DNA of 64,000 bases from contig NW_019211456.1 in NCBI RefSeq assembly GCF_002443255.2, positions 36,897,042 to 36,961,041 on the forward strand. Direction: 5' to 3'. This stretch comes from Varroa destructor. Lineage: Eukaryota; Arthropoda; Arachnida; Mesostigmata; Varroidae. Below are positions 17,435-45,116 of this stretch, piece after piece. The translations under genes and the position numbers were made by a program. Every line of letters starts with the position of its first letter. The first letter of the stretch is position 1. The notes under the pieces were generated by a model, which saw only the letters and a program-made list of their open reading frames with translations, was not told the DNA's origin and did not search any database.

Positions 17435-18049
17435 ACTAGTAATACGAAAAAAATCGTGCGTATGTATGTGTGTGTGCTTATTACCTGTGCAGTGTACAGA
17501 GACCATTACTATAACAACGGCAACATCAGCAGCGGCATCAACTTCGGCAACGACAACAACAAAAAAGGTGAATGAAACTAAGTAAGTGTAAAGTTGATCG
17601 GTGTATGCGATCTACTCGATCTTCGCCCTCGTACACGGACACGTAGTGCGTCGTTGTTGTTGTGGTAGAAAACAGAAACCTACGAACATCTGTATCAGTG
17701 CGCATTGCGTATTGAACGGGACGCCGTCATTTTGCCCGTCGCAAGTAGACGGCACGAACCTAATTGAAAAAAACCCAATCTCATCAAAGCGAACCTGACG
17801 CAAGTGATCCTACGGAAACATTGTGTGTTGGTGTCCAGCCAACGTTGCGCGGCCGCAAAGCCGTCTGCCGCGACGCCGGTCGTCGTCGTGTTGGTGTGAG
17901 CAAGGTGCCTCGCGAACTAAGCCCCACGATTCGGCGCCACGTTGGAGTTGGAGTGGTGGAAGAGCAGCGGCGTCGAAGTGAAGACGGAGCGCGACGCCGA
18001 CGGGACCGCCGGTGAACTGGCCGGTGGGGGTGGCGGTGGTGGCGGCGAG

Positions 18050-19474
18050 ATGGCCGCTGGCTCCAACCCGTATCTGGCCACCAGCGCCGTGTCCAGCCTC
18101 TCGCACTTCAGCAGTATGACACAGGCGCCCGGGGGCTATGGACGAGAACCGCCTGAAATGAAATATATGCCCGCCACCCAACAACACCACCAATGGGCCG
18201 TCGAGTCGATGTGGGCGCCGGCCATCCAGGACATCAAGCCACCCACAGCTGGCGGAGGCCAGCCAACAATGGATATGCCGGGCGCGCTCAGTGCTCATCA
18301 GCGTCAACAGGTTCAGGCGCAAGCCCAGGCCCAAGCAATGGCTGGTTGGCACATGGCCGCCGCTGCTGCCGCAGGCCATTCGCCCCCGCCGACATTTCAC
18401 CAGCAGCATCAGCAGGCGGTTGGTGTCGGAGTCGGCGTTGGAGTCGGGAGCATGGGCGTTGGCGGTATGGGCGGCGTGTACGGCATGCTCGGCCACGTAG
18501 GCCATATGAGCGGTCGCGAATCGGTCCCTTCTCATTCCGACCAGGTGACTTCACAGCTGAGCGGGGGCTCGTTGTCTTCGCCGACACCGACGAGCATTCA
18601 CAACGAGCTATCCCCGCTCCATTCAAGACTTCTGGGTGACCCCCGAGGTCCTGAGAGCGGCGAAGAAGAAGCTCCTAGTTCGGACGACCTGGAACAGTTT
18701 GCGAAGCAGTTCAAACAGCGCCGAATCAAGCTAGGCTTCACGCAGGCCGATGTCGGTTTAGCTCTCGGCACGCTGTACGGTAACGTGTTCAGTCAGACAA
18801 CGATATGCCGCTTCGAGGCGCTGCAGTTGAGCTTCAAGAACATGTGCAAGCTTAAACCTCTGCTGGCCAAGTGGCTCGAGGAGGCGGACAGCACGACGGG
18901 ATCCCCAACCAGCATCGACAAGATCGCCGCACAGGGTCGCAAGCGGAAGAAAAGGACAAGCATCGAGGTCTCGGTGAAGGGCGCCCTCGAGTCGCATTTC
19001 CACAAGCAGCCCAAGCCGTCTGCCCAGGAGATTGCGAGTCTGGCCGACAGCCTGCAGTTGGAGAAGGAGGTGGTTAGAGTGTGGTTCTGCAATCGTCGTC
19101 AAAAGGAGAAGCGTATGACGCCTCCTATTAACGGTGGTCCCGGTTCTACGGGTACTCCTGACCATTTGCTTATGTCAACTTCCCCCTGCTCGCCGGCCAG
19201 CTCCGACCACCACCTGCCGATGCAGCACCACCATCTCAACCACCCCTCGCCACCACCGACCCATCATCACAGTCACAGCCCGCACGGGCATCCCCCACAC
19301 CATAGTCCCCACCACCACGGAGGACCCCACGGCCTGTCGAGTAGCCTCGCCGGGGGTCTGCCAACGCACAGCGCTCATAGTGCAGCCGCAGCACATGCGG
19401 CAATGGCGATGGCCCATCATCAGAGCCATCTGCACTCGCTAGGGGGCCCGCACCAGTCATTAGCTGCCCACTGA
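18050..19474 (+). CDS. vvl: Class III POU-homeodomain transcription factor (Ventral veins lacking / Drifter / Brn-1-2-4 type)
   Basis: Nuclear sequence-specific transcription factor of 474 residues in one uninterrupted exon. The POU-specific domain spans about residues 205-279 and contains the DNA-contacting SQTTICRFE stretch (248-256). A linker of about 17 residues follows, then the POU homeodomain at about 298-357, with basic RKRKKR at 297-302 and recognition helix [14 protein letters not shown] (W345, C347, N348). The linker, the WFCNRR helix and the trailing KRMTPP are class III hallmarks; [13 protein letters not shown] is the invertebrate form. The N-terminal half is low complexity: Gln/Ala runs, a GV-repeat ([10 protein letters not shown]) and His patches. 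The C-terminus is His/Pro-rich. I chose the ATG at 18,050 because its context is good (G at -3, G at +4) and MAAGSNPYL resembles the MA..SNPYL start of POU3 proteins. The frame is open upstream to a TAA at 17,918-17,920 but has no earlier ATG. Known family roles are tracheal, neural and epidermal development. The domain call is very secure; orthology to vvl rests on recognition, not a tree. Confidence 0.96.
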
Positions 19475-19780
19475 CCCCCGCTGTACCCCGGCGGGCCTCC
19501 ATTTTTCAACCCCCACGATACACTAGCCCACCAAACACAACAGCCAACCCACCAGCAAAGCCTGCAGCAGAGCCTGCAACAACAACAACAACAACAGCAG
19601 CAACAAGCTCAGAATAACCAGAATACCCAAACAGGGCAGCAGCAGTCGCAACAGCAGCAGGTTGCTCTGCCCTCGTTGACGTCGTGCAATCCCCAGACGC
19701 CCCAGTCGCAGCCCCCGAACTCGGCGCAGTCCTCGCAGAACGGCAGCCCGCTAAATCCCGACAGCCAGTCCCGATGCTAG
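19475..19780 (+). CDS. Putative stop-codon readthrough extension of the POU protein (101 residues, Gln/Pro-rich)
   Basis: Directly after the TGA at 19,472-19,474 the same frame runs 101 sense codons to a TAG at 19,778-19,780. The translation is protein-like: PPLYPGGPPFFNPHDTLAHQ at the start, a run of ten Gln at about extension residues 35-44, 33 Gln in all, then a Ser/Pro/Asn/Gln-rich tail ending in SQSRC. Gln-rich low-complexity sequence is common in activation domains. The next base after the stop is C, the context most often linked to leaky UGA. A short stem (CCCGC 19,477-19,481 with GCGGG 19,491-19,495) lies just downstream. Drosophila Drifter/Vvl has been reported to make a long isoform by readthrough, which supports this reading. 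Alternatives are plain 3' UTR that happens to stay open, or a sequence error making a false stop. With readthrough the product would be 576 residues. Confidence 0.6.
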   Translation, partial: PPLYPGGPPFFNPHDTLAHQTQQPTHQQSLQQSLQQQQQQQQQQAQNNQNTQTGQQQSQQQQVALPSLTSCNPQTPQSQPPNSAQSSQNGSPLNPDSQSRC

Positions 19781-20078: not shown

Positions 20079-20227
20079 CGAGAGCAACAAGTTTTTGGTG
20101 GATGGATGCTGAGGTGTGATGGCGTGGGTGGCATGCGCAGCCGCCGGGGAACGAGCCCTCTCAACCCTCCTGGCAGACCGAGACCTCGGGATTGGAAACG
20201 CCAACAGTGAACTATCAGTTACGTAAG

Positions 20228-43990: not shown

Positions 43991-45116
43991 GCGGTCGGTC
44001 GGTCGGTCGGTCGGTCGGTCGGTCGGTCGGTCGGTCGGTCGGTCGGTCGGTCGGTCGGTCGGTCGGTCGGTCGGTCGGTCGGTCGGTCGGTCGGTCGGTC
44101 GGTCGGTCGGTCGGTCGGTCGGTCGGTCGGTCGGTCGGTCGGTCGGTCGGTCGGTCGGTCGGTCGGTCGGTCGGGTCGGTCGGTCGGTCGGTCGGTCGGT
44201 CGGTCGGTCGGTCGGTCGGTCGGTCGGTCGGTCGGTCGGTCGGTCGGTCGGTCGGTCGGTCGGTCGGTCGGTCGGTCGGTCGGTCGGTCGGTCGGTCGGT
44301 CGGTCGGTCGGTCGGTCGGTCGGTCGGTCGGTCGGTCGGTCGGTCGGTCGGTCGGTCGGTCGGTCGGTCGGTCGGTCGGTCGGTCGGTCGGTCGGTCGGT
44401 CGGTCGGTCGGTCGGTCGGTCGGTCGGTCGGTCGGTCGGTCGGTCGGTCGGTCGGTCGGTCGGTCGGTCGGTCGGTCGGTCGGTCGGTCGGTCGGTCGGT
44501 CGGTCGGTCGGTCGGTCGGTCGGTCGGTCGGTCGGTCGGTCGGTCGGTCGGTCGGTCGGTCGGTCGGTCGGTCGGTCGGTCGGTCGGTCGGTCGGTCGGT
44601 CGGTCGGTCGGTCGGTCGGTCGGTCGGTCGGTCGGTCGGTCGGTCGGTCGGTCGGTCGGTCGGTCGGTCGGTCGGTCGGTCGGTCGGTCGGTCGGTCGGG
44701 CGGTCGGTCGGTCGGTCGGTCGGTCGGTCGGTCGGTCGGTCGGTCGGTCGGTCGGTCGGTCGGTCGGTCGGTCGGTCGGTCGCGGTCGGTCGGTCGGTCG
44801 GTCGGTCGGTCGGTCGGTCGGTCGGTCGGTCGGTCGGTCGGTCGGTCGCGGTCGGTCGGTCGGTCGGTCGGTCGGTCGGTCGGTCGGTCGGTCGGTCGGT
44901 CGGTCGGTCGGTCGGTCGGTCGGTCGGTCGGTCGGTCGGTCGGTCGGTCGGTCGGTCGGTCGGTCGGTCGGTCGGTCGGTCGGTCGGTCGGTCGGTCGGT
45001 CGGTCGGTCGGTCGGTCGGTCGGTCGGTCGGTCCGTCGGTCGGTCGGTCGGTCGGTCGGTCGGTCGGTCGGTCGGTCGGTCGGTCGGTCGGTCGGTCGGT
45101 CGGTCGGTCGGTCGGT
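43991..45116 (+). repeat. 1.13-kb GGTC tetranucleotide array (about 281 units)
   Basis: A near-pure GGTC array with only five visible irregularities: an extra G near 44,175, T to G at 44,700, two identical CGCGG phase breaks at 44,781 and 44,847, and G to C at 45,034. Everything from 44,176 to 44,699 is perfect. Because four is not a multiple of three and no phase gives a stop, all six frames are open; plus frames read Ser-Val-Gly-Arg repeats and minus frames Pro-Thr-Asp-Arg repeats. These long frames are artefacts of the repeat, not genes. Each unit has one CpG and one GG, so the array is CpG-dense and could form two-layer G-quadruplexes. Confidence 0.95.

What the first reader, a model, noticed from the sequence alone, without database searches (positions are those of the whole stretch)
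19472..19780. Candidate programmed stop-codon readthrough in a class III POU gene
The POU frame ends at TGA followed by C, and the same frame continues 101 codons to TAG. The extension is compositionally protein-like (33 Gln, a ten-Gln run, Pro/Ser/Asn-rich) and the +1 frame hits a stop within about 20 codons. UGA-C is the context most associated with leaky termination in insects. Drosophila Drifter/Vvl is reported to produce a longer isoform by readthrough; an extension in another arthropod would imply old, conserved recoding and an additional low-complexity activation-type domain.
Basis: partly seen in the sequence, partly recalled or inferred. Interest (0 to 1): 0.88.

Follow-up and report, generated by a model that had tools for sequence, protein, structure and literature searches.

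The report
Possible stop readthrough, mite POU3 gene
A developmental gene of the honey-bee mite Varroa is followed, past its normal stop signal, by 101 more in-frame codons rich in glutamine that look like a protein tail; the fruit-fly version of this gene is known to be read past its stop, but whether the mite does the same is unproven.

Summary
The window is Varroa destructor (contig C3 has the published Vdes_3.0 N50 length; the mitochondrial contig has the published size). It holds a class III POU gene (vvl/drifter type) in one open frame that ends ...SLAAH-TGA-C and continues open for 101 codons to TAG. Length alone is weak evidence: 56 of 6093 non-coding stops in the window are followed by as many open codons, and sequence of the extension's own composition is open 15-19% of the time. 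Content is better evidence: 33 Gln codons, no Lys, Glu, Met or stop, while 14 of 16 other CAR-rich stretches in 280 kb hold stops. A codon model from other exons gave no support, but it also failed on the genuine C-terminus. Drosophila dfr is read through at the same place (AAH-stop), but at UAG-C, with a 286-residue extension of different sequence, reported as conserved in Diptera and short in three other insects. Old, conserved recoding is thus not supported. UGA readthrough in an arachnid remains plausible (about 0.45) and would lie outside the clade where readthrough is known to be abundant. No relatives, RNA or ribosome data could be reached.

The parts
18050..19474 (+). Class III POU gene (vvl/drifter type) in one open frame, 474 codons plus TGA
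   Evidence: Pou 1.7e-38, Homeodomain 5.6e-20; of 46 PDB sequences matched the best two are 7xrc 'POU domain protein' and 2xsd 'POU domain, class 3, transcription factor 1'; of the 5 POU-domain matches found in the genome the only one in a long open frame (517 codons)
18680..18889 (+). POU-specific domain
   Evidence: residues 211-280
18944..19114 (+). POU homeodomain
   Evidence: residues 299-355
19472..19474 (+). TGA stop, context CAC-TGA-CCC (UGA-C)
19475..19777 (+). In-frame extension of 101 codons; 33 Q, 14 P, 12 S, 8 N; no K, E or M
19577..19606 (+). Ten-glutamine run, mixed CAA/CAG
   Evidence: Codons listed; run length
19778..19780 (+). Second in-frame stop, TAG
   Evidence: the self-trained coding score falls here
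19477..19495 (+). Possible 7-bp G+C-rich hairpin two bases after the stop; weak
   Evidence: -11.9 kcal/mol, z -1.6 to -2.55 in 30-60 nt windows starting at 19469 or 19475; not in the best fold of the 110-nt stretch

Best explanation
This is the Varroa destructor vvl/drifter (POU3) gene. Most ribosomes stop at the UGA and make a 474-residue factor. A minority probably misread the UGA-C with a near-cognate tRNA and add a Gln/Pro/Ser/Asn-rich, presumably disordered tail of 102 residues (one at the stop plus 101) that could serve as an extra activation-type region. Shown: the gene, the TGA-C, the open frame, its skewed codon content, and the AAH-stop shared with Drosophila. Inferred: that the tail is under protein-level selection. 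Not shown: that it is translated, by what route, or what it does.
For: UGA-C is reported leakier than UGA-N (passage of PMC8417969). The 33 Gln codons are 13 CAA and 20 CAG, with 0 TAR and 0 AAR/GAR in 101 codons; among 16 other CAR-rich rows (at least 15 CAR in 101 codons) in 280 kb of the same genome, 14 hold 1-8 stops, and the two that do not look to me like real coding sequence, unverified. A codon score trained on the gene's own 474 codons stays positive (+15.0, +12.0, +19.2) through the TGA up to the TAG and falls after it; the whole extension has +33.0 against at most +8.8 for the 56 open stretches after non-coding stops, and 0 of 2000 Markov sequences reach its frame preference. No splice donor of 6 of 9 or better lies after 19070 in the stretch scanned, 18680-19474. 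No in-frame ATG, so re-initiation at ATG cannot make it. The fly protein also ends in AAH at its read-through stop. None of 25 distinct stops downstream of exon matches in this genome is followed by more than 58 open codons (34 loci, 9 dropped as repeats; some of those stops are probably intronic).
Against: The own-frame score is largely shared amino-acid composition: a model from 34 other exon stretches (1504 codons) gives the extension -11.3, a value that 43 of 56 controls and 1049 of 2000 Markov sequences reach; its frame preference is reached by 1720 of 2000; the synonymous-only score (0.9) is no better than frame +1 (0.8) and is reached by 9 of 56 controls and 419 of 2000; two antisense frames score higher (+14.5, +19.6). 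That model also rejects the genuine last 115 codons (-17.6), so it has little power here (all). Sequence of this base composition is open for 101 codons 15-19% of the time, and 46 of 2000 composition-matched sequences reach the raw own-frame score. One later 3' window is again mildly positive (+8.2 at 20090-20209). No relative could be compared. The one arachnid tested genome-wide had considerably fewer readthrough genes than insects (passage of PMC5100048). The downstream hairpin is weak and closer to the stop than the fly's.
Confidence: 0.45

Rival explanations
1. Ordinary 3' UTR: a CAA/CAG-rich, T-poor stretch after the stop happens to be open for 101 codons and is not translated beyond background leakage.
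For: 0.9% per stop in this window and 15-19% at the extension's own composition; the independent codon model gives no support; three non-dipteran insects have only short second frames.
Against: 33 CAR codons with no TAR, AAR or GAR, while 14 of 16 other CAR-rich rows hold stops; own-frame score falls at the TAG.
Confidence: 0.37
2. The extension is coding but the TGA is bypassed in another way: splicing out of the TGA, or A-to-I editing of UGA to UGG.
For: The content evidence for coding applies equally; three weak acceptor-like sites (ending at 19526, 19711 and 19853) lie downstream.
Against: The only donors of 6 of 9 in 18680-19474 are at 18780, 18871 and 19070, inside or between the DNA-binding domains; in the fly, splicing and editing at this stop were looked for and not found (passage of PMC8417969).
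Confidence: 0.1
3. The TGA is a recent nonsense change or an assembly error in a gene whose protein normally ends at the TAG.
For: Not excluded by any read data here; the window is itself a piece of the one held assembly, so there is no independent copy.
Against: The frame ends in AAH directly before the stop, as the Drosophila protein does, so the stop position is probably ancestral; only three residues are compared.
Confidence: 0.08

Closest known systems
[quoted passage not shown]
   Same: POU3 gene without introns in the frame; first stop directly after AAH; base after the stop is C; extension with more Gln and Asn than the main frame, and Gln runs (fly: passages; mite: Gln 7.0 to 32.7%, Asn 1.5 to 7.9%).
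   Different: Fly stop is UAG, decoded as Gln; extension 286 residues, conserved in Diptera, with another start sequence, also Ser-enriched and high in His and Ala, and an experimentally supported stem-loop at +9 to +59. Mite: UGA, 101 codons, Ser unchanged, His and Ala lower than in the main frame, only a weak hairpin.
Abundant insect/crustacean readthrough candidates (Jungreis et al. 2016, PMC5100048, passages)
   Same: Leaky-type context and protein-like second frame.
   Different: Those rest on multi-species PhyloCSF; abundant readthrough was not seen in the one arachnid or the centipede tested.

Membership tests
Class III POU (Vvl/Dfr type) | POU-specific domain plus POU homeodomain, closest to POU3 proteins | tested here: met
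   second-best PDB match is POU3F1 and class 2 factors follow far behind; no tree was built
Class III POU (Vvl/Dfr type) | Coding frame without introns | tested here: met
   Single open frame of 517 codons holding both domains; no RNA data
Programmed stop-codon readthrough | Long in-frame second ORF after the stop | tested here: met
   101 codons; 0.9% by chance in this window
Programmed stop-codon readthrough | Leaky stop context | tested here: met
   TGA-C; leakiness of UGA-C is from a passage of PMC8417969
Programmed stop-codon readthrough | Protein-coding signature of the second ORF, single genome | tested here: inconclusive
   For. Not for:
Programmed stop-codon readthrough | Codon-level conservation of the second ORF in relatives | not testable with these tools
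   No relatives found or held; protein database off
Programmed stop-codon readthrough | No splice route round the stop | tested here: inconclusive
   No strong donor near the stop by a simple consensus count; no RNA data
Programmed stop-codon readthrough | Translation beyond the stop observed | not testable with these tools
   No ribosome or peptide data
Orthologous to Drosophila dfr readthrough | Orthologous stop position | tested here: met
   AAH-stop in both: mite, fly junction peptide in a passage of PMC8417969; only three residues compared, in tails rich in A and H
Orthologous to Drosophila dfr readthrough | Same stop codon | tested here: not met
   UAG in the fly, TGA in the mite
Orthologous to Drosophila dfr readthrough | Similar extension sequence | tested here: not met
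   By eye only: first 19 fly residues against the mite; the full fly extension was not available
Orthologous to Drosophila dfr readthrough | Stable stem-loop at about +9 to +59 | tested here: not met
   Fold of 60 nt from +9 (19480) is no better than shuffles (z -0.56); only a 19-nt hairpin two bases after the stop (fly: passage)

The most novel reading that the evidence does not exclude
The stop codon of the arthropod POU3 gene is a recoding site used by both flies and an arachnid at the same protein position, with different stop codons and unrelated extensions: either recoding as old as the arthropods, with its tail replaced and lost in many insects, or two independent origins in the same transcription factor, both adding a Gln-rich tail.
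Probability: 0.35. Interest if true: 0.78.

Novelty: new member of a known kind. Interest (0 to 1): 0.5.

Why it matters
If translated, it would be a readthrough gene in an arachnid, outside the clade with abundant readthrough, in a transcription factor whose readthrough has an experimentally shown developmental role in the fly (ecdysone timing; abstract of PMC8417969). It would make a clean test of whether recoding at this stop is ancestral or arose repeatedly.

Tried and rejected
Re-initiation: the extension has no ATG. Selenocysteine was not pursued; an Rfam scan of the window at gathering thresholds gave no family at all.

Self-trained codon score as proof of coding: rejected as sole evidence after the independent model indicated that amino-acid composition drives it. 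A first version of that model was wrong because minus-strand loci had not been turned; one search replaces it. An earlier synonymous test with the gene's own codons was not decisive.

Searches for relatives in viral and prokaryote contigs: 1 and 22 pattern matches, none a relative. Papers: 'stop codon readthrough' with 'chelicerate' gave 0; 'readthrough', 'stop codon', 'Varroa', 'mite' (at least 3 of 4) gave 139, of which 12 were listed, none on mite readthrough by title. A search for Cf1a/POU-M1 sequence papers led nowhere.

A control set of Varroa transcription-factor genes (homeobox, forkhead, Sox, bHLH) was planned, but the genome search did not answer those requests.

Full report
Observation. 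The plus-strand frame 17921-19474 ends with TGA at 19472-19474, followed by CCC, and the same frame is open for 101 codons to TAG at 19778-19780. The +1 frame stops after 16 codons, the +2 frame after 46.

Source. The held genome G000 has 366.2 Mb in 112 contigs and the window is C3:36897042-36961041. C3 is 58,536,683 bases, exactly the N50 scaffold length of Varroa destructor Vdes_3.0 (passage of PMC6773775). The mitochondrial contig C112 is 16,476 bases; its first 10,000 bases have G+C 0.198, and 16,476 bp with 80.1% AT is published for V. destructor (passage of PMC7748463). C3 begins with CCTAA telomere-type repeats. Not in full agreement: the paper gives 368.94 Mb, 1426 scaffolds and seven large ones of 39.4-76.9 Mb, while one large contig here (C6) is 32.6 Mb.

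Gene. Pfam finds Pou and Homeodomain; the best solved structures are a POU domain protein (7xrc) and POU3F1 (2xsd). Of five POU-domain matches found in the genome only this one lies in a long open frame. It is a vvl/drifter-type gene by these matches; no tree was built.

How surprising is the open frame? 56 of 6093 stops in the window's non-coding parts are followed by at least 101 open codons; Markov sequence from the local 3' region gives 0.4-1.8%, from the whole window 0.3-0.7%, from the extension itself 15-19%. None of 25 distinct stops downstream of exon matches is followed by more than 58 open codons (34 loci, 9 dropped as repeats), though some of those stops are probably intronic. In a genome of many thousand genes such a length alone would be met often.

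Does it look coding? For: trained on the gene's own 474 codons, the frame score stays positive past the TGA to the TAG (+15.0, +12.0, +19.2 per 40 codons) and then falls (+3.4 across the TAG, negative in the next three windows, one later window at +8.2, the rest negative). The whole extension has +33.0 against a best of +8.8 in 56 controls; of 2000 composition-matched random open sequences 46 reach the score and 0 the frame preference. In 280 kb of the same genome (overlapping loci counted as held, two loci all N) 16 rows have at least 15 CAR codons in 101; five of them overlap at one place and two overlap in different frames at another, so there are 11 separate places. 14 of 16 hold stops, and the two that do not look like real protein to me (not verified). 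The extension has 33 CAR, no stop, no Lys or Glu. No control reaches its CAR density (highest 18), so the comparison is not perfect. Against: a model from 34 other exon stretches (1504 codons, 30 of 34 kelch repeats) gives -11.3, which 43 of 56 controls and 1049 of 2000 random sequences reach; frame preference is reached by 1720 of 2000; the synonymous-only score does not favour the frame over +1 (0.9 and 0.8; reached by 9 of 56 controls and 419 of 2000); two antisense frames score +14.5 and +19.6. The same model gives the genuine last 115 codons -17.6, so it cannot judge low-complexity tails (all).

Routes past the stop. In 18680-19474 the only donors of 6 of 9 or better are at 18780, 18871 and 19070; three weak acceptor-like sites end at 19526, 19711 and 19853. 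The extension has no ATG. A 7-bp hairpin begins two bases after the TGA (z -1.6 to -2.55 in windows of 30-60 bases starting at 19469 or 19475, among 28 windows tried, uncorrected) but is not in the best fold of 110 bases (z -1.51, 14 of 200 shuffles as good). It is weak evidence.

Comparison with the fly. PMC8417969 (abstract; [quoted passage not shown] The junction peptide AAHXQSEIQESNSAAAASTPASL shows that the fly frame also ends in AAH. So the stop position is probably shared, while codon and extension are not. In the mite Gln and Asn rise in the extension, Ser does not, His and Ala fall. PMC13170385 (passages) reports that a stem-loop at +9 to +59 promotes the fly event; the mite has none like it. 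PMC5100048 (passages) places abundant readthrough in insects and a crustacean, not in the one arachnid or the centipede tested.

Verdict. A real and well-described candidate, in a species and clade where such a case would be notable. The sequence alone favours a translated tail only modestly; comparison with related mites would decide it quickly and could not be done here.

Noticed in passing
17921-18049 (+): The POU frame is open for 43 codons upstream of the ATG at 18050 with no in-frame ATG (...[26 protein letters not shown]), scoring as coding-like with the self-trained model; possibly a non-AUG start, or merely Gly-rich 5' UTR.
   Followed up: partly
43992-45116: Near-perfect (CGGT)n array, 282 copies of 4 bases, 98% matches; it opens long reading frames on both strands that I take not to be genes.
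   Followed up: yes
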